In this document: positions 1 to 55,005 of the stretch, piece by piece
Layout: each line of letters opens with the position of its first letter
Numbering within the stretch: position 1 is the first letter of the stretch
Virus record (IMG/VR): IMGVR_UViG_3300012984_000568
Coordinates: 1-64,000 of that record
Source of the DNA: a virus
Reading direction: 5' to 3' (one strand)
Length of the DNA stretch: 64,000 nucleotides
The notes under the pieces: generated by a model
Told to the model about the DNA's origin: nothing
Database searches by the model: none
What the model saw: only the letters and a program-made list of their open reading frames with translations
Made by a program: the position numbers and the translations under genes

Positions 1-1167
1 ATGAGTGAGTGGGGGGTAGTGACACTTTCGAGCGAGACATGGGCTCCGTCGCGGCACTTCTCGATTCCCGTTCCACGGGCAGCGCCGGTTCGTTACACCG
101 GGCCCATGGTCCGTCTTGGCGACGTTGTCGATTTGGTGAGCGCAGGAAGTGGGCAGCGACGAGACGAACCGGTTGTCACCCCGAGCGGTGTGTCCCCACG
201 ATCGGGTGCCGTGCAGCCGCGCGCGCACGCGCCGACAGGGCCAGTCTTCAGACTGGGTCAGGGGCTACTCCCCGGGGACATCCTCGTTCCCCTGATCGGA
301 AAAGGACCGTGCGTATTGGCGGTGCCAGAGCACGCGGGCCTTGCCTTTTCTCGTGGTTTTGCGGCCGTGCGGACAAATGGGCAGCTGGCCCCAGCAGTGC
401 TTTGGGCGCTGCTCAGTTCACGTTCAGGGGTCGAGGCGAGGCATGCGCTGGACCGCGGCGCGATCGTACCGAGACTTTCAGCAGTCATGCTCACCGAGGT
501 GCTGATCCCGATGATTCCGCTCGCCGCCATTCCGTCTGTTCAACCGTTGTTGCCAAATCCTGCCGTTGACTGCAGCGGCATCGACGTGGTTGCGAGTCTT
601 TGGCGAGTTGTCTCGATGCGGACGGCTTCGAGTTGGGAGCCGACGCGACTGCTTGATCCTCTGAATGAGACCGGCAGCGTGCTGATCGCCGAACTCGGCA
701 AGGTTTGGGCAGGGCGCCTGGACGCGAGCAAGTTCAAAGAGGGGCCGTTTCCTGGCGGGACGCCCGCACTGCGGCCGAGCGACGTGGGCAGATTGATGAC
801 GCCCCGCTGGTGGGCGGAAGCTCAAAGCAGCGACGTCATCAAGCCGGAATCGATCATGGTCGGCGCGCTATCGGCGCGCGTCGCAACCTCGGAACAACCA
901 GTCGCCATCGCGCGGGACGTCCTCGTCGTCGACATTCTCACTAGACCGACCCTAAACGCCGCGGAGGTCCGGGACCGCGTCGTTGCCTACCTAAGCAGCG
1001 CACTTGGGCAACGTCGTCTCTCGCTGCAAAAAAAAGGCCTCATTCCGCGTCTGTCAAAGAAGAACTTCTTGCAAGTGAGAATTCCCGCGCCCGAGCAGCT
1101 TCCAGCGACGAGTCCCTCAGTGACGGAGCTACTCGAGACCAGCTTGGAGCGGGCGCTGTGGAGCTAA
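1..1167 (+). CDS. HsdS-like specificity subunit (defence/R-M type)
   Basis: A 388-aa protein with two similar halves, as in type I restriction specificity subunits that read DNA through two target-recognition domains. The first half carries GDILVPLIGKGPCVLAVPE and, later, DRGAIVPRLSAVMLTEVLIP. The second half has KGLIPRLSKKNFLQVRIP. Both match the end-of-TRD pattern (…IPRLS…L..v.IP). The two halves are shorter and less regular than in classical HsdS. The ATG is base 1 of the window, so the true start may lie further upstream. The next gene begins inside its last codons, so the cluster is translationally coupled. A methyltransferase or helicase partner would be expected upstream but is not visible. 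The family call is by pattern only. Confidence 0.55.
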   Translation: MSEWGVVTLSSETWAPSRHFSIPVPRAAPVRYTGPMVRLGDVVDLVSAGSGQRRDEPVVTPSGVSPRSGAVQPRAHAPTGPVFRLGQGLLPGDILVPLIGKGPCVLAVPEHAGLAFSRGFAAVRTNGQLAPAVLWALLSSRSGVEARHALDRGAIVPRLSAVMLTEVLIPMIPLAAIPSVQPLLPNPAVDCSGIDVVASLWRVVSMRTASSWEPTRLLDPLNETGSVLIAELGKVWAGRLDASKFKEGPFPGGTPALRPSDVGRLMTPRWWAEAQSSDVIKPESIMVGALSARVATSEQPVAIARDVLVVDILTRPTLNAAEVRDRVVAYLSSALGQRRLSLQKKGLIPRLSKKNFLQVRIPAPEQLPATSPSVTELLETSLERALWS

Positions 1168-2039
1168 CGATCGCGTACATCGACCAAACCCTGACTCCAA
1201 CCTACGGCGTGATCGGGGCGGCGTACGAACTGCTTCTGGAATCGACTGATGACGCGGTAGACGATGCGTTGGGAAAGCTGGACGCCACGCGCGCTGATTT
1301 GGCAAGAGTTGCCAGGCGTTGTCTGGACCTGCGACGCTTTGAAGCGAACGGACCGGCCGGGTTTGATGCACTTTGCGTCCTCACGTTCATTATTGGCAAT
1401 TGGGGCCGCGATTCTGGCGCGAACCGCGCGGGATTCGAGTTCGAACTGAGGCGAGAGGCGACCAAAGCCGGCGACAAGCCGCTCTATGTACCTTTCTGGG
1501 TTCCCTCGGTGGCAGGGATAAATCAGACAGACCTGCTTTTCCCAATAGTTGCGGCGAAACGAACACGCGCGCTTCGAGCGTACGAGGGCCTAGTCCACCA
1601 TTTACGATCCTTAACCGCCGACGCTTCGGAGGTTGCACTAACAGCCGTCCTGTGGCGGGTCGCCGCACTCAGCGACGGTCTGGCGCGGGACAGTGGCGGC
1701 ACAGCAGCGCGATTCAATGCGTTGCGGTTCCAAGTGGCGCAAGATCCCACAATTTCCGACCACGAGAAGCGACTCTGGAACCCGCTTACGACACGCTTCG
1801 TCCATAGCCGTGATGCGCTAACGCACATGATTTGCGAACGCGAAGGCGTCGTGCATGAGGTGTTCGAAACCGCAGTCGAATATGTCTTAGCGCAGCGTCA
1901 CGGGCTTGTCCCGGCGGCATCAGCGCTTGGGCTTGCTGTTTTGCAGGAGATTGCCGTCCACCTGTCCGACATGGATGCTCCGACCGTAGAGTGGGAACGG
2001 GTTCAGAGAGAACACCTGTGGATCGACGATCAGGCATGA
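1158..2039 (+). CDS. Uncharacterised protein of the defence-like cluster
   Basis: A 293-aa protein with a GTG start inside the end of the upstream HsdS-like gene (10-base overlap), preceded by GGAG at 1146-1149. It is soluble and mostly alpha-helical in composition, with no membrane segment and no motif I can name. A central segment, FWVPSVAGINQTDLLFPI, is the least generic part. The gene is locked between a specificity-like subunit and a DUF6361-like protein, which suggests a subunit of the same complex. Function is not assigned. Confidence 0.75.
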   Translation: MELTIAYIDQTLTPTYGVIGAAYELLLESTDDAVDDALGKLDATRADLARVARRCLDLRRFEANGPAGFDALCVLTFIIGNWGRDSGANRAGFEFELRREATKAGDKPLYVPFWVPSVAGINQTDLLFPIVAAKRTRALRAYEGLVHHLRSLTADASEVALTAVLWRVAALSDGLARDSGGTAARFNALRFQVAQDPTISDHEKRLWNPLTTRFVHSRDALTHMICEREGVVHEVFETAVEYVLAQRHGLVPAASALGLAVLQEIAVHLSDMDAPTVEWERVQREHLWIDDQA

Positions 2040-2067
2040 CGGTTTGGAAGCAAGGGAGAGCTCCCGC

Positions 2068-3669
2068 ATGGGATATGAGGTGACCACCGCGTGGATCCTT
2101 CCGCCCAGAGACATCACCGGCGAAGACCACCTCGCCCTGCGCGCGGTCGGTGAGGCGATCTACACTGAGCTGGTTCCCTGCGTCACCAACGTCACGGAGC
2201 GAATCCGCCACTACACCTTCTTCCCATGGTTCACTTGGAAATTCGCGCGCGAGAGGCGCGATGCTGACTACGACGAATTCGTGCGCTTGTTCCGACGGGC
2301 CGAGTGCTTGAATACCTTGATTGGCGCGCACCACGAGACCGGCGGCTCATCGGAGATGCACGGCGCAGGTCTCGCGGGAAGAGGGACGCTGCTCGATCCG
2401 CTTCGCGACCTCGGAAGTGGATCGCTCAGGCTCTCGACCTACGCAGACCCCGGGATTGACGGAGCGGAGCGTTACTTCAAAGCCCAACTCGGCGGGCTCG
2501 ATCAGTACTACCGCGGGACGCTGCAGAGCCTCGACGTCATGGGCGGCAACCGCCAGAGCGGATTGAAGGTCACCCCAAGACGCGGCGTTCGGCTCGCTGA
2601 GGCGTTCGACGCAGGGGTTCCGGGTGATCTGTTTTGGGACACCGTCGTTCGAGACGAGGTGTCCGCGAAGCGTCTCGATGAACTGTCGGCGTTCTGCCCC
2701 TGCCAGCTCGAGCATCAACAAAGAGAGGTCAGCTCCATTCTCGACGTACTATTGAATCGGGACCGAGCGGCGGACGTGCCGGACATGCGGGACGCCGTGC
2801 GGTTGGTCTGCGATTTCCTGGCGGCACAAAATACAACGGCCGAGCGCGGCGCAATCGTATGGGACTTCCGTGAGAGCGCCTATGGGGGGGTGGTTGCGGG
2901 CGGCGCGTGGATTGACCCAGCTCTTCCCAAATGGGCTGCATACCATCGTCATGAGTTGCTCAGCGTGGCGGTGCAGTCGTTGTTTTGGGCGGTATTCCGA
3001 GCGGTCGAGGACGCCGACGCCGGCGGCCAGCTTCCGGTCCTTCACTCCAGCAGCCGGGTCGCCGAATGGTTCATAGGCCGCCACGAGGCGGATCTGGGCG
3101 AGCTCGATCTCACTCGCCCAGTACTCAGCGTCTTCGAGCAGGCGATGAACGAGCTCCCGATACAGGAGGCGATCGCGGACGAGGGACATGAACTACGGCA
3201 GGCCCAACGTCTCATGGCCGAGGAAGAGATTGGGCCCGCGACTGTGGGCGCGCTCAGGCTGCTCACATCCCTGATCGCGCGAATGTCCGATGAGCCACCT
3301 TACGGAGGGTTTGGACGAGAAGAGGCGTATTTCACGGACTACCCCGTCAATCTACGAACCCTGCGCAGCTTCGCTCGCGGGAAGTGGCAATCACTCACAA
3401 TGAGGGATTGGCTGTCCTGGCTCGTGACGCACTGGTGCGTTGGTCACCACCTCCGGGTTGCGTTGCGAAAGCTGCATGCGCAAGGGATCGACACGTTCCG
3501 CCTTCGCCCAACCGAGCTTGGGCTTCAGCCGATCAGAAACATTGACGTAGGCTACGGCAATCCTCGCCTCGACGAGACCCTTCGGGCGCTCCGCGACCTA
3601 GGAATGATCAACGCACAGCACCAGCTTACGCAAGCTGGTGAGCTCCTTCGAAAGGAGCTGCATGGCTGA
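2068..3669 (+). CDS. DUF6361-like defence-island protein
   Basis: The ATG at 2068 is chosen because AAGGGAGAG at 2052-2060 gives a good ribosome-binding site; an in-frame TTG at 2044 has none. The protein is 533 aa. Near its N-terminus, ERIRHYTFFPWFTWKF resembles the 'R-ARYFLFVPWIY' signature I associate with DUF6361-type proteins found in defence islands. The C-terminus ends with a helical segment resembling a winged helix (LDETLRALRDLGMINAQH). It overlaps the downstream PLD gene by 8 bases, which implies coupled translation. Biochemical role is unknown, and the DUF assignment is from memory of the motif and could be wrong. Confidence 0.5.
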   Translation: MGYEVTTAWILPPRDITGEDHLALRAVGEAIYTELVPCVTNVTERIRHYTFFPWFTWKFARERRDADYDEFVRLFRRAECLNTLIGAHHETGGSSEMHGAGLAGRGTLLDPLRDLGSGSLRLSTYADPGIDGAERYFKAQLGGLDQYYRGTLQSLDVMGGNRQSGLKVTPRRGVRLAEAFDAGVPGDLFWDTVVRDEVSAKRLDELSAFCPCQLEHQQREVSSILDVLLNRDRAADVPDMRDAVRLVCDFLAAQNTTAERGAIVWDFRESAYGGVVAGGAWIDPALPKWAAYHRHELLSVAVQSLFWAVFRAVEDADAGGQLPVLHSSSRVAEWFIGRHEADLGELDLTRPVLSVFEQAMNELPIQEAIADEGHELRQAQRLMAEEEIGPATVGALRLLTSLIARMSDEPPYGGFGREEAYFTDYPVNLRTLRSFARGKWQSLTMRDWLSWLVTHWCVGHHLRVALRKLHAQGIDTFRLRPTELGLQPIRNIDVGYGNPRLDETLRALRDLGMINAQHQLTQAGELLRKELHG

Positions 3670-6109
3670 GGGCCTCGGCCTCCTTCAGGAGCTGAAGAAC
3701 GGAAGTTACCAGGCGGCCATCCTCGGTTCCTACAACGTCAGTTTCCCGTTCTTCGAGCAAGTGGTCCTGCGAGCGCTGCGCAGCCACGGCAGTGACCACA
3801 ACGTTCTGTTGATGGATGCTGCTCAGTGCGCAGCATGCCTCGGCGATGACGAGCTCGCACCTCGTTCTGCAGGCCGCCTCTACGCGCTCGTCCCTGTCGC
3901 TGCCCCCGGAGTCTTCCATCCCAAGTTCTTGCTGCTGCTGGGCAAGCGGCAATCGAAGCTCATCCTCGGCAGCCACAATTTGACCCTGAGCGGGTTCGGC
4001 TTGAACCGAGAGATATCCAACATGATCAGCATCCACGACCGTGAGTCGGAGGGTATCGGAAGGGCGGCCTTCGATTTCGCTCTCGCTTGGGCCGGCACGG
4101 CAGCGGGCGAGGTTGCCGAGTTGGTCGAGGCAGCACGAAACTGGGCGCCGTGGCTTGCAGGCAAGCGCGGCGCGAGCTCGGAGGTGGCCGCGCTTGGAAC
4201 CTATCCCATTGGTCCGTGCCTTTGGGACCAGCTGGAACCACTTCTGGGCAATGGCGTCTCGAGGATCACCGTGCTTGGTCCCTATTTCGACAATGGGATG
4301 CGCTTCATCACAACACTCCGAAATTATTCGGATGCGGAACTCGTGGTGGCCATTCACCCGGAACACTCGCAACTTGACCCTGTAGTGGCGAAGCGCCTAC
4401 CGGGTGTGTCATTCAAGGATCTTTCGTCCTGGCAGGGAGACCATCCCAAACGCCTCGTTCACGCAAAGGCGATCCATTTTGTGCTGAAGAACGGCGAGTC
4501 GGTGTTCGTGAGCGGCAGCGCCAACCCAAGCGCCCCGGCATGGCTTGACGCGGAGCGCCGCAACGCGGAGCTAGTGGTCGTTCGATGGCTACCCAAAGGT
4601 AACGTGCTCGCCGACCACCTCGGCATCACTTCACTGAGAGATTGCCCTGATGTCACGGAGGCTGTCTGGCAAGCAATCGATGGTCGCCGTGCCTCGGAAA
4701 CAGAGCGTGTCGATGCCAAAGGTCAACGGGCGTGGGTTGCGCTCGAGAACGAGAATGGGTTCACCGTCGAATCGAGCTTCGCTGGCCCCGACACGCCGGT
4801 CGCCGTGCTGGATGCTGAACGCGTTGAGCTCCTGCAGACCAAAGTCACTTCAACGGTCGACTCGCGCCGCATGATCGGGGCTACGGACAACGAGGTGCGC
4901 CAACTAGCAACGTACCTGGAGGTCAACGACGGGGCTGGCGTTCGTCGCGCCGTTGTTCAACACCTTCACGAACTACGTGATCGCGCGACGAGCAAGGAAC
5001 GGCGCTCCCTGCGCAAGGCGCTCATGGATCTGGATATGGCCGACGAGGGCATCGACGTCTACATGGCGGTGATCGAGAAGGCCATTTTCGACGGCGAGCC
5101 CGCGCCTCGACAGCGAGCAGGGCGAACGGGCCTGCCACAGAAGCATAGCGCCACTCCTGAAGGTTCAGTCGGTGTGGGTGAGCTCGAGAAGAGGGGTCGG
5201 AGAAGACCGCGCCTAAGCACAGGCGACGTCGGCGTCGTGCTTGACGCACTCATCCATAAACTCGGGGAAGGACTGCCCGGTGTTTCGGCCGCCGCTGCGC
5301 GCATCAGCGAGGAGCAGGTCGACGAGCACACCGAAATCGCGATTCCGCGGACCCGTGCAGAACAGCGAGCGCTAGCGCAGCGTTGCCGATTGAAAACTCG
5401 CAAGTTGATTCGACGAATGCTCAAGCGGTTGGAGCTGGCGTGGAACGAGGAAGCCGAGCCGTTCGCTGTGGCCGTGCAGTTCGTGGCCTGCCTCGGTTTG
5501 CTCCACCGCATTAGCGAACGTCAGGCCAAGTTCGAGTGGCTCCCTGCCGGAGGCGAATTGGTCGAGACCGAATGGCTGTGGAAATTGTTCAAGCGGGCTG
5601 CCGTCGTCGGGTTCGCTCCTCGCCACGGCGCTAGGACAGCGTTGGAGGCGGAGCATGGCGAGTTCTCGGAATTGGCATCCGCGGCGGCGCTGACGCTCTG
5701 GTCAGCCTGGACCACCGGGCTGGACCTGGGCACCGCCATGTCCACCCAGGCTGTCGAGGACGAAGAGCAGGAGGAGAATCTGACCGGTCTTTCCCTGCTG
5801 CTAAACTGCTTGGACCCAAACCTCATGCCCGACGATGAGGAGCTGGCGTACCTGTTCGGTGAGGACGGGCGCGCCTGGCTGGATCGGCACATGAAGTGGG
5901 CGAGCGCCATCCGGTCTTCTTCGTCGGCGAAGGGCGCCGCGAGGCCAGGCAGCGTCGTTCGCTTCCTGCTGGGCGGCGATGTCGAGCTGGGTGTCGTGGT
6001 GAAGACGCTCGATGGCAAGGTCGAAGTCATGGACAGGACGACGGGGGCGCTTCGGCGATATGATGCGAGCGCAGTAGAACGCCTGGCGCTGGAGTTGCTG
6101 CGGACATGA
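3662..6109 (+). CDS. Two-HKD phospholipase-D-fold protein, putative defence nuclease
   Basis: An 815-aa protein with ATG at 3662 placed 4 bases after AAAGGAG (3651-3657), so the longer frame from 3638 is rejected. Two PLD-type active-site motifs are visible: H86-x-K88 followed by GSHN (N106), and H267-x-K269 followed by GSANPS (N288). Both acidic positions of the classic HxKxxxxD are replaced, as in nuclease-type PLD proteins. The remaining ~500 residues are unlike the short DrmC-type PLD proteins and are rich in charged helical segments, including a long acidic stretch before the C-terminus. In this context it is probably the DNA-cleaving effector of the cluster, which is an inference. It ends 320 bases before the next recognisable gene, on the other strand. 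Confidence 0.7.
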   Translation: MAEGLGLLQELKNGSYQAAILGSYNVSFPFFEQVVLRALRSHGSDHNVLLMDAAQCAACLGDDELAPRSAGRLYALVPVAAPGVFHPKFLLLLGKRQSKLILGSHNLTLSGFGLNREISNMISIHDRESEGIGRAAFDFALAWAGTAAGEVAELVEAARNWAPWLAGKRGASSEVAALGTYPIGPCLWDQLEPLLGNGVSRITVLGPYFDNGMRFITTLRNYSDAELVVAIHPEHSQLDPVVAKRLPGVSFKDLSSWQGDHPKRLVHAKAIHFVLKNGESVFVSGSANPSAPAWLDAERRNAELVVVRWLPKGNVLADHLGITSLRDCPDVTEAVWQAIDGRRASETERVDAKGQRAWVALENENGFTVESSFAGPDTPVAVLDAERVELLQTKVTSTVDSRRMIGATDNEVRQLATYLEVNDGAGVRRAVVQHLHELRDRATSKERRSLRKALMDLDMADEGIDVYMAVIEKAIFDGEPAPRQRAGRTGLPQKHSATPEGSVGVGELEKRGRRRPRLSTGDVGVVLDALIHKLGEGLPGVSAAAARISEEQVDEHTEIAIPRTRAEQRALAQRCRLKTRKLIRRMLKRLELAWNEEAEPFAVAVQFVACLGLLHRISERQAKFEWLPAGGELVETEWLWKLFKRAAVVGFAPRHGARTALEAEHGEFSELASAAALTLWSAWTTGLDLGTAMSTQAVEDEEQEENLTGLSLLLNCLDPNLMPDDEELAYLFGEDGRAWLDRHMKWASAIRSSSSAKGAARPGSVVRFLLGGDVELGVVVKTLDGKVEVMDRTTGALRRYDASAVERLALELLRT

Positions 6110-8638: not shown

Positions 8639-8907
8639 ACCACGAGCAGCCGATTCACGCCTCCGAGGTACGCCAAATGCTGCGCGACGGCACGCTGATT
8701 ACCCGTGCCTCAGCTGAAGGGGCGCACGACATGGAACACGACGAAGTCCTTACCCTTCGTGATGTAGCAAGGTTGCTGCACTTCGAGCGACACACCATCA
8801 AAAAGCTGCTCGATCTCGGACTTCCGTCCCATCGCGTGGGTTCGATGCGCCGGTTTTTGCGCTCTGAGGTGCTTGTCTGGCTGAAGGCTCAGAAGGAGAC
8901 CAAGTAA
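8635..8907 (+). CDS. Excisionase-like HTH protein (second of pair)
   Basis: A 90-aa protein with a 4-base ATGA overlap with the preceding HTH gene and a 1-base overlap with the integrase start. TLRDVARLLHFERHTIKKLL and RVGSMRRFLRSEVLVWLKA give an excisionase-type HTH with a DNA-binding wing. The xis-int order, with direct coupling, is the usual arrangement for a recombination directionality factor. Confidence 0.75.
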   Translation: MNHEQPIHASEVRQMLRDGTLITRASAEGAHDMEHDEVLTLRDVARLLHFERHTIKKLLDLGLPSHRVGSMRRFLRSEVLVWLKAQKETK

Positions 8908-10280
8908 TGGCCGTCGTCCCGCGAAAGACCAAGACAGGAACCACCTATCGGGTCACGGTTCGAGACGCCGAGGGGAAGCAATTCTGGGAACCCGCCGGGT
9001 CCGATCGCCGCGCCGCACAGTCGCTCGAACGCAAGCGGAAGCGCGAGGTGCGCGACGGCACTTTCGCGCGCGGGAAACGGCCGACCATGCCATTCGGTGA
9101 GTTCCTCGCGGCGTGGGGGAAAGATCGCCGCAACCGCAACGCAGACGACGACCGGCGAATCATCGACACCCACCTGTGCAGCCGCCCGTGGCTAGCGAAT
9201 CTGCCGTGTGAAGAGCTTCGCCCGCTACACGCCGAGCGACTCGTACGTGAGTTGCTCGAAACCGTGAGCTCTCAGACAAGTCGCGCGCTCGGCGAAAAAT
9301 ACGTCTCGAATATTTACGGCCTCTTCCGCACGGCGTGCAGCGACGCCCGCCGACAAGAGCTCATGTTCGTCGACCCGTGCATCCTGCCGCGCGGCCTTCT
9401 GAGTCGGAAGCACCGCCGCGGAACGCGGCAGCCCTACGCCATCGAGAACGTGACGAAGTTGATCGGCCTACAAACCGAGGCGGGCGTCTTCGCCGCGTTG
9501 GCGCTGCTCACGGGCATGCGCGAGGGTGAGATCTGCGGCCTCCGATGGCGCGATGTCGACGAGGAGGTCAAGACTCTGGGCTGCATCAAGCTCACCTCGC
9601 AATACGACGGTCAGCCCCTTAAGACGGAGCGAGGACAGGGCGAGCACTCGCGGAACATCCCGATCCACCCCGAGCTGGGCCGCAAGCTCGCCTGGTGGCG
9701 CAGCAAAGGCTTCGAGCTCACAAACTGTCGCAAGCCGGGCCCCACAGACTTCATCGTCGCTCGCCGAGAGCGCGGAAACCTCGAGCGGCTCGTGAACCAC
9801 ACCAAGAAGAGCGGCGCCAAGCTCTGGGCGCGTGCCTGCCGTGAGGCCGGCGTCGAGAGCCAGACCCTCCACGCCACCCGCCACACCTTCATCACGCTCG
9901 CCCGCCGCGCCGGCGCCCGAACCGAGGTGGTCGAACGCATCACGCACAACTCGTCCGGGACGATCGTCGACCACTACACTCATTGGGACTGGGAGCCGCT
10001 CTGCGAGGCGGTCCTCGCAATTCGGCTCCCAGAGCCCGTTGCCAAAAATGTTGCCGCGCTTGCGGCGCGGCCCATTTTTTCCGTTCAAACAGAGTGGAGG
10101 CGCCGGGAATTGAAGTCGGTTCCTCAAGTAGTCCCGCGGGCAATTCTACGTCAATCCGTGGAATTGCAGCCTGATTTCCGGACGCGGTTTCCTGCGCAAT
10201 TTCACCGGTCAGGTGCAGACTTGGCCGCGCGTCAAAGTCGGGGCCGTTTGGGGGCGGAGAATCGAACAGCGAGCCGATAG
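8907..10280 (+). CDS. Tyrosine recombinase / integrase A
   Basis: A 457-aa site-specific recombinase. An N-terminal arm-binding segment (MAVVPRKTKTGTTYRVTV) is followed by a SAM-like core-binding domain and the catalytic domain: Arg205 in TGMREGEICGLRW, H322-x-x-R325 in HATRHTF, and nucleophile Tyr357 in VDHYTH. The catalytic domain ends near 10040, but the frame runs another ~75 codons through an intrinsic terminator (10053-10080) and an att-like sequence (10095-10114). The last part may therefore be DNA acquired at integration rather than native coding sequence. It is clearly homologous to integrase B on the opposite strand. Confidence 0.93.
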   Translation: MAVVPRKTKTGTTYRVTVRDAEGKQFWEPAGSDRRAAQSLERKRKREVRDGTFARGKRPTMPFGEFLAAWGKDRRNRNADDDRRIIDTHLCSRPWLANLPCEELRPLHAERLVRELLETVSSQTSRALGEKYVSNIYGLFRTACSDARRQELMFVDPCILPRGLLSRKHRRGTRQPYAIENVTKLIGLQTEAGVFAALALLTGMREGEICGLRWRDVDEEVKTLGCIKLTSQYDGQPLKTERGQGEHSRNIPIHPELGRKLAWWRSKGFELTNCRKPGPTDFIVARRERGNLERLVNHTKKSGAKLWARACREAGVESQTLHATRHTFITLARRAGARTEVVERITHNSSGTIVDHYTHWDWEPLCEAVLAIRLPEPVAKNVAALAARPIFSVQTEWRRRELKSVPQVVPRAILRQSVELQPDFRTRFPAQFHRSGADLAARQSRGRLGAENRTASR

Positions 10281-11358
10281 CGAGCACGGCGGCGCACAGC
10301 TCGGACCAGTCGCGGTGCGTGTAGCGGTCCACGATGTCCCCCTTGGCGTTGTGCGTCACCTTGGAGACCACCGCTTTGTCGCCCCCACCACGGCGCGCCA
10401 GCGTGATCATCGTGTGCCTGGTCGAGTGCAGGGTCTTGTTTGGGATGCCCGTCACCTTGAGCGCCTTCCGGGTGAAGAGCTTCGAGAAGCTCGACTTGGT
10501 ATGGTGCGGCGCCCTGGCCCACCGGCTGACATTGGGTACGATGTAGTCCTCGGGGGTCGGGGCTCGGCCCATCAGCTGAACGAACCCGACTCGAGCCCAG
10601 TGCTCCAAGATGCGCTGCAGGTCAGGGTGCACGGGCACCACGCGGCGCTTCTTGGTCTTCAGCGCCCGCCCGCCGTATTGGGTCCCGACCTCAAGCGCCC
10701 AAAGTGGGGTGGGGGCTTGGTCGAGGTCGCTCCAACGACGCCCGCAGGCCTCGCCCTCGCGCATGCCGCCGAGCAGGCAAAGGGCCAGGAGCACGCGGAT
10801 CGGCTCCGGGATCTTGTGGTGCGAAACGAGCACCGCTGTCTCGGTACGCGTGTAGGACTCGCGTTCCTTCGGGTCTTCGTCCGCAAAGTAGCCGCGGGGC
10901 AGCACGCACGGATTGGCCGTCACGAGTTCGGCGATCTGCGCGTCGCGGAACATCGTGTTCAGCGCGCCGTACGAGTTCTGAAGCGACTTCAGCTTCACCT
11001 TGCCGGCAATCTTGAGCTGCTCGAGCGCGGCCATGATGTGACGCGGCCGCACTTCCTCGATCTTGAGGCCGGCGAACTCTGGCAACGCGAGAAAGCGGCC
11101 GAGGTTGCGGCGATCGTCGGGTGCCGAGATGTTGCGGCGCGCGGCGCCCCACGTGGTGCCGTACTCAGCAACGGTCGGCTCGGCCGTCTTTTGGTTCGGG
11201 CGAAACGTGCCCTGCTTCACCTCGCGCTTGCGTTGCTTGTCGAGGCGTTGGGCTTCGCGCTTGTCGGTTCCGGAGCGCTCATTGTACGCAGCGCCCTGGA
11301 ACCAGGTGACGACGTAATAAGTCGTCACGTGCTTCCGCTTCTTGGTGACTACAGCCAT
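9940..11358 (-). CDS. Tyrosine recombinase / integrase B (prophage)
   Basis: A 472-aa protein homologous to integrase A over its whole length. Shared blocks include MAVV at the start, PCVLPRG, GGMREGEACGRRW (catalytic Arg), TLHSTRHTMITLARR (HxxR) and DIVDRYTHRDW (catalytic Tyr). It starts inside the end of the excisionase-like gene (4-base overlap), typical of xis-int coupling. As in integrase A, the frame continues ~100 codons past the catalytic domain through the att-like core and terminator, overlapping integrase A antisense by ~340 bases. It is the likely integrase of the prophage to the right. Confidence 0.93.
   Translation of the reverse strand: MAVVTKKRKHVTTYYVVTWFQGAAYNERSGTDKREAQRLDKQRKREVKQGTFRPNQKTAEPTVAEYGTTWGAARRNISAPDDRRNLGRFLALPEFAGLKIEEVRPRHIMAALEQLKIAGKVKLKSLQNSYGALNTMFRDAQIAELVTANPCVLPRGYFADEDPKERESYTRTETAVLVSHHKIPEPIRVLLALCLLGGMREGEACGRRWSDLDQAPTPLWALEVGTQYGGRALKTKKRRVVPVHPDLQRILEHWARVGFVQLMGRAPTPEDYIVPNVSRWARAPHHTKSSFSKLFTRKALKVTGIPNKTLHSTRHTMITLARRGGGDKAVVSKVTHNAKGDIVDRYTHRDWSELCAAVLAIGSLFDSPPPNGPDFDARPSLHLTGEIAQETASGNQAAIPRIDVELPAGLLEEPTSIPGASTLFERKKWAAPQARQHFWQRALGAELRGPPRRAAPSPNECSGRRSSRTSCA
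10053..10080. terminator. Bidirectional intrinsic terminator between convergent integrases
   Basis: A perfect 7-bp stem (GCCGCGC, 10053-10059; GCGCGGC, 10065-10071) with a 5-base loop is followed on the plus strand by a T-run at 10075-10080. On the minus strand the same hairpin is followed by five Ts (10033-10037 on plus are As). It would stop both integrase transcripts, yet it lies inside both open reading frames. Confidence 0.75.
10095..10114 (-). other. Candidate attachment core resembling a tmRNA 3' end
   Basis: Plus-strand TGGAGGCGCCGGGAATTGAA. Read on the minus strand it is TTCAATT, CCCGG, CGCCTCC, A: a T-loop, the 3' half of a T-stem, an acceptor strand and a discriminator. This resembles the 3' end of ssrA (tmRNA), a common target of phage integrases. 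It lies between two integrase genes pointing at it. Identity with the host gene cannot be tested here. Confidence 0.5.
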
Positions 11359-13008: not shown

Positions 13009-13322
13009 GACGGAGCACGCGGGCCGGCCAACGCTCGCTGTTCGGTTTTTGTGGTCAGCCGAGCCCCAAGGACTTCCACCCTGGTTCCGGGTACGGAGCG
13101 GGCTCCACAACATTGGGCGGACCCAAGAGTTTCGCTGACGCTCCTGACCGTTGCTCGACGCTGTCTCTCCAGCTGTCAAAGTGTCGACTGTGCACACCGC
13201 TCGGGCCATCGAGCATTGGGACCGTGGTCCGTGCCCGGTTTGGCCTTGTTGCGCCACCCGCGATTGGTCGCAGCCGTTACTGACTACGAATGTTGCCGTT
13301 TTTGCATCCGCGGCCGACACTG
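13009..13322. other. Apparently non-coding stretch 3' of the tRNA
   Basis: About 310 bases between the XF1762-like gene region and the tRNA. A minus-strand frame is open here, but it runs straight through the tRNA and has no start or ribosome-binding site of its own. I see no other feature. Confidence 0.45.
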
Positions 13323-13394
<72 letters not shown>

Positions 13395-34859: not shown

Positions 34860-35219
34860 CTAGTTGTTGCCGACGTAGAGTTCGAGCGTCTTGTCGCGGG
34901 TCGCGCCGTTGGATAGGAACCAACGGCTTCGGAGCAAGTAGCGCTTTGGATCGGGGCGCACGCCTGGCGTCACGACCGGATTAGCGACACCACCGTCGAC
35001 GCTGCACGTCGCCTTCCAAAACACGTCGAACGTCACCACGACGAGGCCGAGCGTGAACGCGGACGGAACCACGGGAACATCCGCGTCATCAACCTCAGTG
35101 ACCGTAACCGATGTGACCGTCACGCCCTCCGGAACGTCGCCGCCCCTGAACGTGATGGCGACGCGATCGTCCGGGTCTTTGACGCCTGGAAACCTGGGGA
35201 GTTTTGCGCTTGCGCTCAT
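34860..35219 (-). CDS. Tail-fibre adaptor-like protein
   Basis: A 119-aa beta protein from ATG 35219. FPGVKDPDDRVAITFRGGDV at the start and RYLLRSRWFLSNGATRDKTL at the end follow the layout of phage fibre-tail adaptor proteins (KDPDE-R-D at the start; Y-LR…G…D-T-L-V at the end). Overlaps the large fibre-like gene upstream by 4 bases. It ends in TAG. Confidence 0.5.
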   Translation of the reverse strand: MSASAKLPRFPGVKDPDDRVAITFRGGDVPEGVTVTSVTVTEVDDADVPVVPSAFTLGLVVVTFDVFWKATCSVDGGVANPVVTPGVRPDPKRYLLRSRWFLSNGATRDKTLELYVGNN

Positions 35220-38200
35220 TTCAAAACCAGGAGCGGTGAGGTGAACGGAGCATCGCCGAGATCGAACAGCGGAGAGCAGAACAGCAGCGACGCCACCGGC
35301 GCCCCGCTTGGGTCGAACGTCTTGGACGCGCCTGAGCGCTCGAGCGAGCGCACGCTGGTGCACGCCGTGAGCGCCGTGGTCGTGGTTGCTCCCGAGCTCG
35401 CCAGCGAACGAGTGACGCTTGGCGCCGAAATCGACCCTGAGAAATCCACCGACGCGCTCGACACTGCCATGCTGCGCGATGGGCTGCAGACGGTGCCTAG
35501 CGCAACCTGGGCGGCGCTTGAGCGTGCCAGCGAGCGGCTAGCGGAGGGGGAGCTCGTCGACAGCGTCGTGTCGACCGAAGCCCCCGAGCTCGCCAGGCTG
35601 CGGCTGCTCGAGCAGACAAGGGCAGCCGCGGCCACTGCGGCGCACGAGCTGCCGAGTCCGCGGGAAGCAGCGCAGACGGCGCCCACGGTGAGCACAGGAG
35701 CGCTCGAGCGGGCGAGAGAACGCGTCGTCGACGGGGCCGACGTCGAACCGGTGGTGTCGACCGAGGCCCCACTGGTCGCCAGGCTCCGCGTGCTTGAGCA
35801 AACCGTCCCCGTGTCGCTCACCGTCGCACCGGAGCGCGCGAGTGAGCGTGAGGCGGACGGCACCGAGACCGAGCCCGTTGAGTCGACGGATGCCCCAGAG
35901 CTGGCCTGGGACCGGACCGCCGAGCATGCCGCGAGGAGCAAGGCTGCGGCGGCCCCGCTCGAGCTCAGCGATCGGGACAGGCCCGGCGCGACCGTCGGTG
36001 ACTCCAGAGGGGCGCCCGACTTGGCGAGCGAGCGGATTGGCTGCCCCAGGGCGCTTGGGTTAGGGCTTACCGCGCCGCTATTGGCCGCGCTGCGCGTTGC
36101 CGCCGGCGCGTCGCCCGTCGTGTCAACCGCAGCTCCCGACGTCGCCAGCGAGCGCGTGGTGCTCGGAACCGAGGCCGTAGCCGTCGAGTCCACGGAAGCC
36201 CCCGAGTTCGCGAGGGAGCGACTCGGCTGCGCAGCGGCGCCGGCGGTGGTCTGAGTCGCCCCTGACGTTGCCTGCGAGCGCGCTGGGGTGGCAGCAATGA
36301 CGGCTGACGAGAGAGTCGCGCCAGAAACGCAGTCGCCCGGCCCACCAATCGAGATCGAAACCGCGGTGACGCTGGAAGCGCACGGGGAGAGCGGAGACCG
36401 AGATGGCGACGAAATATCGCTGGCGACGCATACCGCAGCGAACGCGCGGGCAGCGCTTCGGGTCGCGCTCGGCGCGCTCACTGAGCCGGTGCTATCGACA
36501 GACGCGCCAGATCGCGCCTGGGTGCGAGCAATAGCGGGAGCTGCGGTGACGTAGGTCTGCGTTGCCCCGGACCGGGCCTGCGACCGGCTCGTGGACGGAG
36601 CGCTCGCGCTCGTTCCAGTCGCGCGCATCCTGAGCACCACGCCAGGCCCGCGCGCGTTGGTAGTCGTACCGCCCGTCGTAGCCGTGAAGACCGGCGCCGC
36701 CGAACTCGTGCCGCTCAGCGCCTTCGCTGAAGCAATAAACCCGGCGATCTGATTGCCAGTCGCGGTGGTTGGTTCCGCCAGCTCCGTGACCGAGCTGTAG
36801 GTGATTCCCGTCGTGGTGACGGCTTCGGCTGAGTAGGTCGCTGCGTTCGACGCACCGTTAAATGCCAGCAGCACAACGTCGCCAGCAACTTCTCCAGGAT
36901 CACTTCCAGCCGTGATCGATACGTTGCCGGAGGTAGTGTCGCTTCCAGTTGCGCTCGCATAAGAGATCGTCGAACCAGCAATCGGACGCAGCAGAACGAA
37001 CGTTGCAGAGCAAACGTTGTTCGTCCCGACCGTGACAGATAGCGTCCCGCTCTCGCTTCCAGTTGCAGGGGTCGTCTTGCGATAGACGAACGTATTCGTG
37101 TTGCCCGTGCCCGAGCCGAGCGTTGTCGAGTAGCCGCCCGCGCCCGTGAGCGAGTCGATCAGTGTATAGCCGGTCGGTGTCGTAACCGTGCCGCTATTCG
37201 CTGTGCTCGGCTTCTGCGCGACAATCAGGATGATCTCATCGCCGGCCTGGATGGTCGGCAACGTCGAATAGCTAGGCGCGACGCTGGTACCGCCGCTCGT
37301 CGAATAGACGGGCGTGTTCGCGCCTAGGTTGCGCGTTCCGACGTAGACGAGCGCAGGCGAACTCGTGGTCGTTCCAGCATTCGTGCCGCCAGTCTCAGTG
37401 ACCGCGCACGTATAGCTTCCGAGATCGTCAGTGTACGCAAGCGCAGCAGTCGTGTAGCTCGAAGTAGTGCCACCGCTACCCGTGCTGACGTTGGTGCCGT
37501 TGATCTTCCACTGGTAGGAGAGAGTGCCGCCGCCAGATGCCGTCGCGGTGACCGAGAACGAAGCCGTCGCTCCGCTTGCAACCTGAGTCGACGCCGGCTG
37601 ACCTGTGATGTTCGGGCCGACGCTGCCGGGAATCAGCGCAATCGCAGTCGCTGACCACGCAGCGGCACTCGGCCCACCCGTCGAGATCGAGACCGAGCCA
37701 CCAGACGAAAAGCCATCGAGTGTCGCGACGTCGGGAAATGCGCTGCTTTTTACATAGCTCGAGTTTGTGCCGCAGCTGCCCGCTGTCTGAGTAGAGCCGT
37801 CGTTGGCGTTGACGAGCAGAACGCAAACATCGCCGGAGGTCGTGCCGGTTAGCGATACCGACGGTGCCGAGGCGGTGCCGGAACTCTGATTCTGGACGCG
37901 CAACCCGCTGCACGCAGGCAGCTCGACGATCGACATCGTGATGCCGTCGCCGCCTGAGATTGCCGCCGATGTGACAGTGTTGGCGCCAGCCGCAATGCCG
38001 AGCGCGTAGAAAATCCTAACCCACTTGAGGGTGCTTGGATCCTGAAAGGCGGTTGTCGCCGTGTACGAATTGCCGCGCGTGTCGCTGACCGATACGGGCG
38101 AATTGTCAGTTGACCACACGCATGCCGCGATCGTGTTGCCTGCGGTGTTGGCTGAACCGAATGCGACGGGGTTCGCTACCCCGCCGAAAACAACAGCGGA

Positions 38201-38227
38201 GGCCGATTGGATTGCGGGATCTGCCAT
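35216..38227 (-). CDS. Large repeat-containing tail fibre/tip protein
   Basis: A 1003-aa protein. The N-terminal ~200 residues are a beta domain (AGNTIAACVWSTDNSPVSVS … SIVELPACSGL). Residues ~205-295 are an Ig-like domain (LSYQWKINGTNVSTG … SYTCAVTETGG). A second beta domain runs to ~520. The rest is ~20 degenerate repeats of ~21 residues built on (S/T)RS-x-A-x-SGA. The protein lacks membrane or signal segments, as expected of a virion surface component. The repeats probably form a long fibrous shaft or an exchangeable receptor-contact region. Confidence 0.75.
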   Translation of the reverse strand: MADPAIQSASAVVFGGVANPVAFGSANTAGNTIAACVWSTDNSPVSVSDTRGNSYTATTAFQDPSTLKWVRIFYALGIAAGANTVTSAAISGGDGITMSIVELPACSGLRVQNQSSGTASAPSVSLTGTTSGDVCVLLVNANDGSTQTAGSCGTNSSYVKSSAFPDVATLDGFSSGGSVSISTGGPSAAAWSATAIALIPGSVGPNITGQPASTQVASGATASFSVTATASGGGTLSYQWKINGTNVSTGSGGTTSSYTTAALAYTDDLGSYTCAVTETGGTNAGTTTSSPALVYVGTRNLGANTPVYSTSGGTSVAPSYSTLPTIQAGDEIILIVAQKPSTANSGTVTTPTGYTLIDSLTGAGGYSTTLGSGTGNTNTFVYRKTTPATGSESGTLSVTVGTNNVCSATFVLLRPIAGSTISYASATGSDTTSGNVSITAGSDPGEVAGDVVLLAFNGASNAATYSAEAVTTTGITYSSVTELAEPTTATGNQIAGFIASAKALSGTSSAAPVFTATTGGTTTNARGPGVVLRMRATGTSASAPSTSRSQARSGATQTYVTAAPAIARTQARSGASVDSTGSVSAPSATRSAARAFAAVCVASDISSPSRSPLSPCASSVTAVSISIGGPGDCVSGATLSSAVIAATPARSQATSGATQTTAGAAAQPSRSLANSGASVDSTATASVPSTTRSLATSGAAVDTTGDAPAATRSAANSGAVSPNPSALGQPIRSLAKSGAPLESPTVAPGLSRSLSSSGAAAALLLAACSAVRSQASSGASVDSTGSVSVPSASRSLARSGATVSDTGTVCSSTRSLATSGASVDTTGSTSAPSTTRSLARSSAPVLTVGAVCAASRGLGSSCAAVAAAALVCSSSRSLASSGASVDTTLSTSSPSASRSLARSSAAQVALGTVCSPSRSMAVSSASVDFSGSISAPSVTRSLASSGATTTTALTACTSVRSLERSGASKTFDPSGAPVASLLFCSPLFDLGDAPFTSPLLVLK
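35290..36610 (-). repeat. ~63-bp tandem coding repeat array
   Basis: About 20 imperfect units, each encoding ~21 residues around a core such as SRSLASSGASVDTTGS. The units alternate between ones starting AP/VP and ones starting CS. One similar unit (APSASRSQARSGAS) occurs at the N-terminus of the next gene, 38231-39406. The bias also leaves a 337-codon open frame on the plus strand that I regard as an artefact. Confidence 0.75.
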
Positions 38228-49063: not shown

Positions 49064-50169
49064 CAGTCCGCCTCATCCCAGGGCAAAACGTCCGGGGTCT
49101 CGCCGCTGAAGGCGCCAGGCAACACGAGGTTGAGCGATGCACTGAGCTTTTCCGTGCTCTGGCGCAGGGTCACCTCGCGGATGAGCATTTCCGTTTCTCG
49201 GTAAACCATCGCACCAGGAGCGAGCAGCGTGAGGCTCGTGTTCGGGTCCCAAAGCTTCCCGTCCGGATCTCGCCAGGTGGGGAGATCGTCAATCGTGTAG
49301 CTCACAATGTTCGCGAACATTCTCCCCATCATGGCTTTCGCCGAATCGGGAGCATCCGCGCGCTCGGTGTCGTTGAACTTCTTCGATATCGGACGGTATT
49401 CGTTGATTGGCGCGCCCGAGTCGAGGCGCGTTCCGAGGTGCGGGTTCAACGCCACCGTGACGCCGCCTTTTTTGCCTTTGCACGCCGGGGCGTAGCCAGT
49501 GATTTGGCTGTAGAAGTCCTGGGGCGAGAAGTTTGCGCTCACCTTCGTCAACGGCGGGACGGCTTCGACGAACTGCACGACCGGCGCGCCGCGTTTGATG
49601 GTGCGCCAAAACAGCACCTTCCCCGCCTCGGTATTCGTAATCACGAATCCGCGCTGCTGCGCGAGAGGGACGAGGAAGGCGTGGATCTTCTTTTCGATCT
49701 CGATGCTGACCCGATCGAACTTCGGGCCCGGGTCGCCGCGAAACTCGCAGTCCAAATCGAACGGGTCGCAGAGCTGCTGCGCGATCGCCTGCAGCGTCAT
49801 CTTGGTGAACTGCGTCTTGATTGCGCCTTTCGGCCGGCGCCCCTTGTAGCCTTCGCCGGTTGGCGCGGTGCAGTCGCAGAGCATGCCGGGGAAGGCGTAG
49901 CAGGACACCGACACCGTCTTCGAATCACGGTCTATCCTCGGGTCCGGCGTCAGCATCGTCCCAGTGAACAGCGGGTCGCCGTTCAGCAGGACCTGCACAG
50001 GCTGGTACGAGAAGGGCCGGAATAGGGTGCGAAATTCCTTCCGGGATGGCTCGAACGGAGCCGAGAATCGAATCGAATCGAACTTGTCGACCGACAGCGT
50101 GACCTCGAGATCGAGCCAGTTTGCGAACTTCTTGCCGGCGATCACCAGCTCGATTTTCTCGTCGAGCAT
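49063..50169 (-). CDS. Baseplate hub (Mu gp44 / P2 gpD-like)
   Basis: A 368-aa protein. IRFSAPFEPSRKEFRTLFRP, GDPLFTGTMLTPDPRIDRDS, YAFPGMLCDCTAPTGE, and IEKKIHAFLVPLAQQRGFVI give the late-control/hub architecture. It forms the trimeric hub holding the spike. Confidence 0.85.
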   Translation of the reverse strand: MLDEKIELVIAGKKFANWLDLEVTLSVDKFDSIRFSAPFEPSRKEFRTLFRPFSYQPVQVLLNGDPLFTGTMLTPDPRIDRDSKTVSVSCYAFPGMLCDCTAPTGEGYKGRRPKGAIKTQFTKMTLQAIAQQLCDPFDLDCEFRGDPGPKFDRVSIEIEKKIHAFLVPLAQQRGFVITNTEAGKVLFWRTIKRGAPVVQFVEAVPPLTKVSANFSPQDFYSQITGYAPACKGKKGGVTVALNPHLGTRLDSGAPINEYRPISKKFNDTERADAPDSAKAMMGRMFANIVSYTIDDLPTWRDPDGKLWDPNTSLTLLAPGAMVYRETEMLIREVTLRQSTEKLSASLNLVLPGAFSGETPDVLPWDEAD

Positions 50170-51572
50170 CAGGCCGCAGTCGGGTAGTAGACGATGCGTT
50201 TGCTCGCCGGCAGCTCGAGCAGCTCATCACCAGTGAGGTCGTTGCTCGTGATCAGCAGGTCGAGCTTCCCGTCCTTGTCGACGGTGCCGTAGAGCTCGGC
50301 GCACAAGTCGATGACGGTGCGCGGGCGGGTCAGGACCACAGCGCGCTCCGGCAGCGCCGAGAACGACGCTTGAATCAGGTAGCCAGCCGTCTTCGCCACT
50401 ACGTTCTGCAGCGCGGCGTAGGCTTCGCCGGTGTCGATGGCTTGGCTGGCATCGCCGATGGGGCCGAGTGCCGCAAACCCGTCGTCCCGCCAAGCCACGA
50501 GCGCGTCCATTTGCTCGAGCACCGCAGCAGCTGTCGAGAGGATCTGCGTTCGATTGCTGAAGCCCGCCGCAAGCGCGACGGTTGGCGCCTTGATCGGCTG
50601 CGAAATCGCGGTGACCACTGACCCCGCGACGGCGTTCATCGAGAAGAGGCTCGCGATGTGGAAGTCGTTGGCTACTTCCGCTTGATGCCCCGCGAGAACT
50701 GACGCCGAACTGAGCGCTTTCGCTGGACTGCCTGCGCTGGAGCCGAAGATCTCCGTGGCGAGCCGCGCATACGCGTCCAAGCGCGAGGCGATGCCAGCGA
50801 GCGCCCGTCCCGGCGCCTGGATCAGGTTCGAAATCTGCAGCGCAAGCGCCAGCGGGTTGCCAATGAGCACATCCATTCCGCCGTTGACCGCGGCCAATCC
50901 TTTGCCAAAGCCGTTGCGGACATCGGCAATAGAATCGGAGATCTTTCCTAGCGCCGCCTTGACCTTCTTCAGCAATCCCTTGAGCGTGCCAATGGCCGCC
51001 TGCTTCCGCACCGTGGCGAGTAGGTTGGTGTTCGACAAGAACTGCGCGGCGACGGCAGCATTGAAAAGATCGAGCAAGCCTTCGATGTCGCCGGTACCGC
51101 TGCTCGTGTCGTCCGGGTAGATCGCGGGGATGCTGGTCCAAAACGTCACCGTGACGACGCTCTGATTTGAGGCCGTGACCAGCGCGTCGTTTCGCTCGAC
51201 GGTACCAAACGGCAGGGCCGCGATCGTGCCGTAGAGAGGGTGCTCGAGCCGCCCAATCCCTGGCTCCATCAGCGCCGCTTCGAAGCCGCCGGCGAGCAGG
51301 TCGCAGTTCTTCCCGCCGAAGAAACAGACCATTGGATACTTGCGCGAGCTATACCCAGTCTGCTGCACATAAGAATCGCTGACGCCGGGAAAGTCGAAGG
51401 CTGTGCCGCGGACGTCGAAGCTGCGCCCGACGTCGGTGTACGCAAACGGCACACGCGTACCGGTGACGGGTGACGTGTATGCCGCTTCCTTGAGCCGATC
51501 GCGCCAGCTGCTTTGACCACCGAAGCCAATCAGCTTCGAGGCGACACTCGATACGGGTCCGAGGTCGGGCAT
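50169..51572 (-). CDS. DNA circularisation protein (Mu gp43-like)
   Basis: A 467-aa protein with WRDRLKEAAYTSPVTGTRVP and FDFPGVSDSYVQQTGYSSRK at the start and the DNA_circ_N-type core (MVCFFGGKNCDLLAGGFEAA). Long helical segments follow. In Mu the homologue is a tail protein that enters with DNA. Overlaps the tape-measure end by 1 base. Confidence 0.82.
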   Translation of the reverse strand: MPDLGPVSSVASKLIGFGGQSSWRDRLKEAAYTSPVTGTRVPFAYTDVGRSFDVRGTAFDFPGVSDSYVQQTGYSSRKYPMVCFFGGKNCDLLAGGFEAALMEPGIGRLEHPLYGTIAALPFGTVERNDALVTASNQSVVTVTFWTSIPAIYPDDTSSGTGDIEGLLDLFNAAVAAQFLSNTNLLATVRKQAAIGTLKGLLKKVKAALGKISDSIADVRNGFGKGLAAVNGGMDVLIGNPLALALQISNLIQAPGRALAGIASRLDAYARLATEIFGSSAGSPAKALSSASVLAGHQAEVANDFHIASLFSMNAVAGSVVTAISQPIKAPTVALAAGFSNRTQILSTAAAVLEQMDALVAWRDDGFAALGPIGDASQAIDTGEAYAALQNVVAKTAGYLIQASFSALPERAVVLTRPRTVIDLCAELYGTVDKDGKLDLLITSNDLTGDELLELPASKRIVYYPTAA

Positions 51573-54483: not shown

Positions 54484-54517
54484 GATTTACCCTCGTCCGT
54501 TTCTTCAAACAGCCGCT

Positions 54518-54901: not shown

Positions 54902-54923
54902 TTGAATCCTCGCTCGTGCGTGG

Positions 54924-54952: not shown

Positions 54953-55005
54953 GACTGCGCAGCTGGGCGCTCAGGGGTCAGGCCGCGACGCGCGGTGATT
55001 GGTTG

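What the first reader, a model, noticed from the sequence alone, without database searches (positions are those of the whole stretch)
1..6109. Defence-type cluster pairing HsdS-like, DUF6361-like and an 815-aa double-HKD protein
Four co-directional genes overlapping or nearly touching end to end: a two-TRD specificity-like protein, a 293-aa unknown, a protein with an RIRHYTFFPWF motif (DUF6361-like), and a large PLD-fold protein with H86xK88/N106 and H267xK269/N288. Separately, PLD nucleases and specificity subunits occur in defence islands such as DISARM or methylation-linked systems. This exact combination, with such a long PLD effector, I do not recognise as a named system. The cluster lies next to an integrase-bearing element end, consistent with mobile cargo. 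The missing upstream part decides its class.
Basis: partly seen in the sequence, partly recalled or inferred. Interest (0 to 1): 0.72.

Follow-up and report, generated by a model that had tools for sequence, protein, structure and literature searches.

The report
DUF6361-like and PLD nuclease defence pair
The last two of the four genes are a conserved, tightly coupled pair, a predicted DNA-cutting enzyme and a partner of unrecognised fold, that turns up alone and inside different anti-virus gene clusters, among them restriction-modification operons.

Summary
The four co-directional genes are real. The record begins at base 1, so nothing upstream can be read. ORF1 is a divergent two-TRD HsdS-like protein; ORF2 (293 aa) is essentially an orphan. 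ORF3+ORF4 are the core: a long-form relative of the pair that PADLOC-DB calls ZacA (Pfam DUF6361) and ZacB (PLD). Both genes are present in 50 of 56 fetched homologous loci and adjacent in all 50, with overlapping frames in 48; their distances co-vary (r=0.95). ZacB models as a single-chain, two-site PLD fold (Tdp1/PLD3-like) with conserved HxK..N..E pairs. ZacA models confidently (pLDDT 90) without a significant PDB match. Same-strand neighbours vary: type I R-M genes (10 of 50), SNF2-helicase/DrmMI-methylase genes (8 of 50, one Zorya I), neither (32). The tree needs at least 7 changes of type I context. HsdS-x-ZacA-ZacB, as in the window, recurs inside hsd operons, so the window is probably the 3' end of a type I R-M-like operon carrying the pair. 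The canonical helicase ZacC is not in the visible part. My paper searches found no description of ZAC. New variant of a known kind; the mechanism (nuclease effector plus partner, antiviral) is inferred, untested.

The parts
1..1167 (+). ORF1, HsdS-like specificity protein with two target-recognition halves (388 aa; may be 5'-truncated or start exactly here)
   Evidence: PADLOC Specificity_I 8.9e-5 and mad5 7.5e-4; hit at 1.3e-4 by a local HMM grown by iteration from the HsdS of L024; hhalign to 9 HsdS, prob 89.5, E 2e-6, residues 87-175; stretch GxIPRLS...IP shared between its halves, E 8e-4 in a two-sequence comparison
1158..2039 (+). ORF2, 293-aa protein without informative relatives
   Evidence: No hit in Pfam, PADLOC, NCBIfam at E<=1, plasmids, viral contigs; one marginal match (7e-4) in 377 genomes
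2068..3669 (+). ORF3, long-form ZacA (DUF6361-like), 533 aa from ATG 2068 or 541 aa from TTG 2044; conserved N-terminal NVTxRxRxYxFxPW motif
   Evidence: PADLOC ZacA hit by 6 of 7 family members, not by the window protein itself; hhalign to two DUF6361 proteins, prob 93, E 3.5e-7; AF2 model pLDDT 90.3, pTM 0.88; no significant PDB fold match
3662..6109 (+). ORF4, long-form ZacB, PLD-family phosphodiesterase with two HxK..N..E sites in one chain and a C-terminal extension of about 460 aa; 815 aa from ATG 3662 or 823 aa from GTG 3638
   Evidence: PLDc_2 7.6e-7; ZacB 1.3e-11; catalytic residues invariant, or at least 90% for K96, in 45 sequences; model matches Tdp1 and other PLD folds
3662..4711 (+). 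approximate codons of the two-site PLD domain inside ORF4 (to residue 358 of the 823-aa form; first site H94/K96/N114/E125, second H275/K277/N296/E311)
   Evidence: model range aligned to Tdp1 and PLD3 (about residues 5-358); conservation

Best explanation
ORF3-ORF4 are a long-form ZacA-ZacB pair, an antiviral module that here sits at the 3' end of a type I R-M-like operon whose hsdM (and perhaps hsdR) lay upstream of the record's first base. ZacB would be a metal-independent DNA phosphodiesterase: its two HxK..N..E half-sites in one chain form one PLD active site working through a phospho-histidine intermediate (PLD chemistry as recalled, not tested). ZacA, encoded in an overlapping frame just before it, would be its partner, holding it inactive or loading it. 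Discrimination of self from foreign DNA and DNA translocation would be supplied by the host operon (HsdM/HsdS methylation and HsdR here; an SNF2 helicase with a DrmMI-type methylase elsewhere; the dedicated helicase ZacC in canonical ZAC). Shown: conservation and co-variation of the pair, domain identity, active-site conservation, recurrent R-M or helicase context. Inferred: nuclease activity on DNA, antiviral function, coupling to the neighbouring translocase, hsdM upstream of the window.
For: Adjacent ZacA-ZacB in all 50 loci (of 56) where both were found, overlapping frames in 48 of 50, distance matrices r=0.95 over 45 rows, 0 of 2000 permutations as high. PLD catalytic residues conserved in 45 sequences; Tdp1/PLD3/PLD4-like fold. 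Homology of both proteins to canonical ZacA/ZacB, which form a triad with a helicase, ZacC, in L064 and L066. Same-strand type I R-M genes in 10 of 50 loci: M-S-x-(x)-ZacA-ZacB-R in L024 and L032, the same in L026 with R cut by the locus end, R-M-S-x-ZacA-ZacB in Sorangium L038. HsdM within the fetched DNA of 9 of 50 loci against about 0.6% expected per 20 kb (139 HsdM_N matches in 120 genomes of one phylum). Window ORF1 is itself HsdS-like.
Against: 32 of 50 loci have neither type I R-M nor SNF2/DrmMI genes in the same-strand run, and 28 have none anywhere in the fetched DNA (several contigs are short). Seven further loci from evenly drawn genomes show none by my HMMs, so the pair may act alone. 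No HsdM or HsdR match among the ORFs of the window's first 14 kb. The HsdS match of ORF1 is weak. I found no experiment on any ZacAB.
Confidence: 0.55

Rival explanations
1. ZacAB is a self-sufficient two-gene defence unit (nuclease plus partner, possibly abortive), and R-M or helicase neighbours are only fellow residents of defence islands.
For: 32 of 50 loci lack R-M/SNF2 genes in the same-strand run; pairs without such neighbours among evenly drawn genomes, e.g. L079, L081; genes between HsdS and ZacA differ from locus to locus.
Against: In L024, L026 and L032 the pair lies between hsdS and hsdR of one hsd gene run, which is more than loose clustering.
Confidence: 0.33
2. The cluster is the tail of an already named system (MADS, BREX, DISARM) whose signature genes lie upstream.
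For: ORF1 matches MAD5 weakly (7.5e-4; 4.6e-4 in NCBIfam, far below its cut-off); six ZacAB loci carry DrmMI-type methylases by local HMM, four of them checked with PADLOC, some with a DrmD/DpdE-like helicase; one pair follows Zorya I.
Against: ORF1 matches Specificity_I better than mad5. ORF2 and ORF3 match no PADLOC model at E<=1, and ORF4 matches ZacB (1.3e-11) far better than DrmC (0.0058).
Confidence: 0.07
3. ZacB is a Tdp1-like DNA-end repair enzyme and the pair serves repair rather than defence.
For: The best Foldseek matches are Tdp1.
Against: Patchy distribution (7 of 398 genomes; 2 of 356), plasmid carriage, placement in R-M, Zorya and SNF2/methylase clusters.
Confidence: 0.05

Closest known systems
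PADLOC-DB ZAC (ZacA PDLC03828, ZacB PDLC03829, ZacC PDLC03830)
   Same: ORF3 and ORF4 are homologous to ZacA (Pfam DUF6361 in the two canonical loci checked) and ZacB, in the same order
   Different: Window proteins are longer (533/815 aa against about 400/600 aa) and very divergent; Pfam DUF6361 does not reach ORF3; no ZacC helicase in the visible part; an HsdS-like gene and an orphan precede the pair
Type I restriction-modification operon
   Same: HsdS-like gene on the same strand, one gene away from ZacA-ZacB, as in L032 and L038 (two or three genes away in L024 and L026)
   Different: hsdM and hsdR not visible; carries two extra genes of the ZAC kind
DISARM (DrmMI, DrmA, DrmB, DrmC)
   Same: PLD-family protein in a methylase/helicase defence cluster; DrmMI- and DrmD-like neighbours in several relatives
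   Different: ZacB is a two-site protein of about 820 aa that DrmC models match only weakly (0.0058); no DrmA or DrmB match among ORF1-ORF4
MADS (MAD5 specificity subunit)
   Same: ORF1 weakly resembles MAD5
   Different: No MADS model matches ORF2-ORF4
PbeA, an HKD endoDNase fused to an SF2 helicase
   Same: Same theme of a PLD/HKD nuclease with an SF2 translocase (PMC10853773, passages read); weak PbeA match of ORF4, 2.8e-5
   Different: Here the nuclease is a separate protein with a DUF6361-like partner, and the translocase, if any, is borrowed

Membership tests
PADLOC ZAC (ZacABC) | ZacA / DUF6361 protein | tested here: met
   By profiles only: 6 of 7 family members hit ZacA (best 1.5e-5), the window protein not; hhalign to two DUF6361 proteins 3.5e-7; Pfam DUF6361 not reached
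PADLOC ZAC (ZacABC) | ZacB PLD protein directly after ZacA | tested here: met
   ZacB 1.3e-11; hhalign 1.7e-12 over 302 columns; 8-nt overlap with ORF3
PADLOC ZAC (ZacABC) | ZacC helicase adjacent | tested here: inconclusive
   None of the window proteins scanned with Pfam after ZacB is a helicase; upstream of base 1 cannot be read
Type I R-M | HsdS with two target-recognition domains | tested here: met
   Weak but consistent:
Type I R-M | HsdM and HsdR | tested here: inconclusive
   No HsdM or HsdR HMM match among ORFs of the window's first 14 kb; upstream of base 1 cannot be read
MADS | MAD1-MAD8 gene set | tested here: inconclusive
   ORF1 weak mad5; ORF2-ORF4 hit no mad model; upstream not readable
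DISARM | DrmA helicase and DrmB DUF1998 protein | tested here: inconclusive
   No DrmA/DrmB match among ORF1-ORF4; upstream not readable
BREX | PglZ, BrxC and PglX | tested here: inconclusive
   No such match among ORF1-ORF4; upstream not readable
PLD superfamily nuclease | Two conserved HxK..N/D sites in a bilobal fold | tested here: met
PLD superfamily nuclease | DNA cleavage activity | not testable with these tools
   Needs biochemistry

The most novel reading that the evidence does not exclude
Long-form ZacAB is a general nuclease 'plug-in': one effector pair that couples physically to whichever DNA translocase and methylation-discrimination system is encoded beside it (HsdR with HsdMS, SNF2 helicase with DrmMI, ZorD), turning a restriction enzyme into a two-stage or fail-safe immune system, with ZacA, a protein of no recognised fold, as the adaptor.
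Probability: 0.27. Interest if true: 0.75.

Novelty: new variant of a known kind. Interest (0 to 1): 0.5.

Why it matters
ZacA, ZacB and ZacC exist as database profiles, but my searches of the open-licence PMC library found no paper that describes them (PADLOC+ZAC: 0 papers; Zac protein names: 504 papers, the 20 listed all unrelated). The long form shows the pair without its own helicase, found now in type I R-M operons, now in SNF2/methylase clusters, now alone. If it works in the first two, one nuclease-adaptor pair can be served by unrelated translocases, which gives a clean experimental handle on how R-M operons acquire embedded second effectors. ZacA is also a confidently modelled helical family for which no solved relative was found here.

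Tried and rejected
ORF3 in viral contigs and phages, and the ORF3-ORF4 DNA in E. coli genomes in 'near' mode: no match. ORF2 and ORF1 against plasmids, ORF2 against viral contigs and five homologue genomes: no match; ORF2 in 377 genomes gave one marginal match, which I do not use; ORF1 in 377 genomes none at 1e-5. PDB sequence searches with ORF1, ORF2 and the ZacA profile gave nothing usable (best E 0.18 and 0.67). Fold searches with the ZacA model gave no match at E<=0.001 in PDB or BFVD and a best second-look Z of 4.8 over 101 residues; this does not prove a new fold. The idea that ORF2 belongs to a family of small proteins found directly upstream of ZacA elsewhere was rejected: those are several unrelated families (PIN7, DUF4268, others) and none matches ORF2. 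A tRNA-anchored insertion was looked for at tRNA-Met 13322-13394; no second copy of its end was found in the window. My first guess that L020 shows an M-S-x-ZacA-ZacB operon was wrong: the three genes before its ZacA match LmuB weakly, a YhcG-type nuclease (PDC-S02) and an HNH protein. Paper searches: DUF6361 0 papers; 'Zorya-associated' 0; PADLOC+ZAC 0; PADLOC+ZAC+DISARM+Zorya 0; Zac protein names 504 papers, 20 listed, none relevant; one search listed 10 of 139,328, none with ZacB; some searches listed 2, 5 and 3 papers, of which I opened one for passages (PMC9142583). Of the 10 listed I opened one for passages (PMC10853773).
Full report
What is there. The window's first 6.1 kb hold four + strand genes as described. 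Starts and residues were checked directly: ORF1 1-1167, ORF2 1158-2039, ORF3 2068-3669 (533 aa), ORF4 3662-6109 (815 aa; H86/K88/N106/E117 and H267/K269/N288/E303). The window is the first 64,000 bases of an 84,372-base virus record that starts at the same base. ORF1 opens with ATG at base 1, as if the record had been trimmed at a gene boundary (inference). Nothing upstream can therefore be read.

ORF1. No Pfam hit. PADLOC gives Specificity_I 8.9e-5 and mad5 7.5e-4, NCBIfam MAD5 4.6e-4, far below its cut-off. An HMM grown by iteration from the HsdS of locus L024 picks ORF1 at 1.3e-4 among 5052 ORFs, and hhalign against nine HsdS proteins gives prob 89.5, E 2e-6, over residues 87-175. The two halves of ORF1 share a GxIPRLS...IP stretch (E 8e-4 in a two-sequence comparison), as I would expect of two target-recognition domains. 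It is a divergent HsdS-like protein.

ORF2. No relative in Pfam, PADLOC, NCBIfam, plasmids or viral contigs, nothing below E 0.67 in the PDB, none in 5 homologue genomes, one marginal match among 377 genomes. Its role is unknown. It occupies the slot between HsdS and ZacA in which other loci have unrelated genes.

ORF3 and ORF4 are a conserved pair. ORF3 found 8 plasmid records by tblastn, of which I fetched 6. A two-row alignment found 50 loci in genome contigs. Of these 56 loci, 55 have a blastp-detectable ZacA ORF and 50 also ZacB, each time directly after it. The six without ZacB are four with only a fragment of ZacA (L034, L042, L054, L055) and two whose contig ends inside it (L047, L057). 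In the two plasmid records not fetched, the ZacB match also directly follows the ZacA match. The ORFs, taken from their first possible start codon, overlap in 48 of 50 loci; L024 and L052 have gaps of 95 and 259 nt. Over 45 rows with both proteins well called (window included), pairwise distances correlate at r=0.95, 0 of 2000 permutations as high; shared descent contributes to this. Left out of the alignments: for ZacA L034, L042, L047, L052, L055, L057; for ZacB L015, L024, L025, L039, L043, L052 (frameshifted, truncated or doubtful start).

Names. PADLOC calls ORF4 ZacB (1.3e-11; weaker PDC-M27B 5e-8, PbeA 2.8e-5, DrmC 0.0058) and 6 of 7 ORF3-family members ZacA (best 1.5e-5; the window's own not). 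The ZacA of two canonical loci is Pfam DUF6361. These loci, L064 and L066, show ZacA-ZacB-ZacC, with ZacC a protein of about 1050 aa with SF2 helicase domains. The long-form profiles match the canonical proteins: ZacA about residues 23-114, prob 93, E 3.5e-7; ZacB 302 columns, prob 97.7, E 1.7e-12. L064 carries both a long-form pair and a canonical ZAC locus about 9 kb apart.

ZacB. The active-site residues H94, N114, E125, H275, K277, N296, E311 (823-aa numbering) are invariant in 45 sequences and K96 in at least 90%. The model (pLDDT 83.6, pTM 0.73) matches Tdp1 with DNA (Foldseek 4.3e-9). In the second look, vaccinia F13 and a phospholipase D lead at Z about 22-23, then Tdp1, PLD3 and PLD4 at about 20-21, over about residues 5-358. 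The remaining 460 or so residues (beta domain, helical domain, small C-terminal barrel, low-confidence linkers 490-527 and 542-567) are uncharacterised.

ZacA. The model (44 sequences, pLDDT 90.3, pTM 0.88) is mostly helical. No PDB match reached E 0.001, best second-look Z 4.8 over 101 residues, no BFVD match at E 0.001. Invariant residues include T51, R53, R55, Y57, W62 in the N-terminal motif and H469, R508, D518 near the C-terminus (541-aa numbering).

Contexts. Same-strand runs around ZacAB contain type I R-M genes in 10 of 50 loci (L010, L024, L025, L026, L031, L032, L035, L038, L043, L056) and SNF2-helicase and/or DrmMI-type methylase genes in 8 of 50 (L004, L007, L011, L014, L015, L017, L020, L033; L015 is on the same strand but was not flagged as part of the run by my rule). 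L004 is Zorya I. In L024 the order is hsdM-hsdS-GIY/DUF4357-PIN7-zacA-zacB-hsdR; L026 and L032 are similar; Sorangium L038 is hsdR-hsdM-hsdS-x-zacA-zacB. The window's HsdS-x-ZacA-ZacB fits this pattern. HsdM lies within the fetched DNA of 9 of 50 loci (L005, L010, L024, L026, L032, L035, L038, L052, L056, plus a fragment in L021), against 139 HsdM_N matches in 120 genomes of the phylum of L024's genome, about 0.6% per 20 kb. The detection methods and the spread of phyla differ and defence genes cluster, so this is a guide only. On a quick ZacA tree of 50 rows the type I label, with the window left uncounted, needs at least 7 changes and the SNF2/DrmMI label 6, so the pair has changed company repeatedly. 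The labels are also somewhat clustered: with the window counted as type I, that label needs 8 changes against a shuffled mean of 10.2, as low in 26 of 500 shuffles, and all three labels need 13 against 17.5, as low in 0 of 200. The tree has some long branches.

Results against. 32 of 50 loci have neither kind of neighbour in the same-strand run. Four of these have type I matches elsewhere in the fetched DNA (L005, L052, a fragment in L021, an HsdR-HMM match on the other strand in L008), and 28 have none, some because contigs are short. Evenly drawn genomes carry the family rarely: 2 of 356 (one of them the known centre) and 7 of 398 (one the known centre, L024's genome, and one whose coordinates match L029). 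Of seven further loci taken from these draws, 5 have adjacent ZacA-ZacB, 2 (L082, L083) no ZacB match, and none has R-M or SNF2 genes by my HMMs; L078 and L080 have a RecQ-HMM match nearby, and L080 and L084 are short. So coupling to R-M is not obligatory.

Mechanism. Most likely ZacB cuts DNA by PLD chemistry (recalled, not tested) and ZacA, encoded with it, controls or recruits it; in operons like this one the type I enzyme would supply self/non-self discrimination and translocation. The pairing of HKD nucleases with SF2 helicases is a known theme (PMC10853773, passages read). For DISARM, where the PLD protein DrmC is dispensable, mixing of nucleases from elsewhere has been proposed (PMC9142583, passages read). 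None of the functional steps is shown here.

Mobility. The pair lies about 3 kb from two tyrosine integrases (8907-10280 + and 9940-11358 -; Pfam Phage_integrase), 38.6% identical and convergent, each with small HTH-like ORFs before it (by eye). The right-hand integrase borders what reads, by eye, as a prophage; the left-hand one has its own small genes on the ZacAB side. ZacAB is thus more likely on a neighbouring element or host island than cargo of the prophage itself (inference).

Noticed in passing
window 8907-10280 (+) and 9940-11358 (-): Two convergent tyrosine integrases, 38.6% identical, whose 3' ends overlap by 341 nt, each preceded by small HTH-like ORFs (by eye): looks like the abutting ends of two integrated elements.
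   Followed up: partly
window 50169-63170 (-): By eye, without a search, the translations read as a tailed, Mu-like prophage (portal 61518-63170, S49-type protease 60139-61515, sheath 55006-56793). A search of the record with one terminase family, PF03354, found nothing.
   Followed up: no
window 19193-20842 (+): By eye a ParB-like protein of 549 aa.
   Followed up: no
window 35216-38227 (-): 1003-aa protein whose C-terminal half repeats a short SxxRSxAxSGA-like stretch many times (by eye).
   Followed up: no
L064 248-4448 and 12091-19502: One contig of a gammaproteobacterial MAG holds a long-form ZacAB pair and, about 9 kb on, a canonical ZAC locus preceded by a further PLD protein.
   Followed up: partly
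L012 7396-8880: A protein matching PADLOC BilD (1.3e-169) lies two genes before ZacA.
   Followed up: no
L033 7179-10001: A Dsr1-like protein (4.6e-99) lies directly before ZacA in a SNF2/DrmMI cluster.
   Followed up: no
L024 8330-9950; relatives in L026 and L021: A GIY-YIG/DUF4357 (PDC-S14) gene and a PIN7 gene sit between hsdS and zacA in L024, with homologues before zacA in L026 and L021, so such operons carry several candidate effectors.
   Followed up: partly
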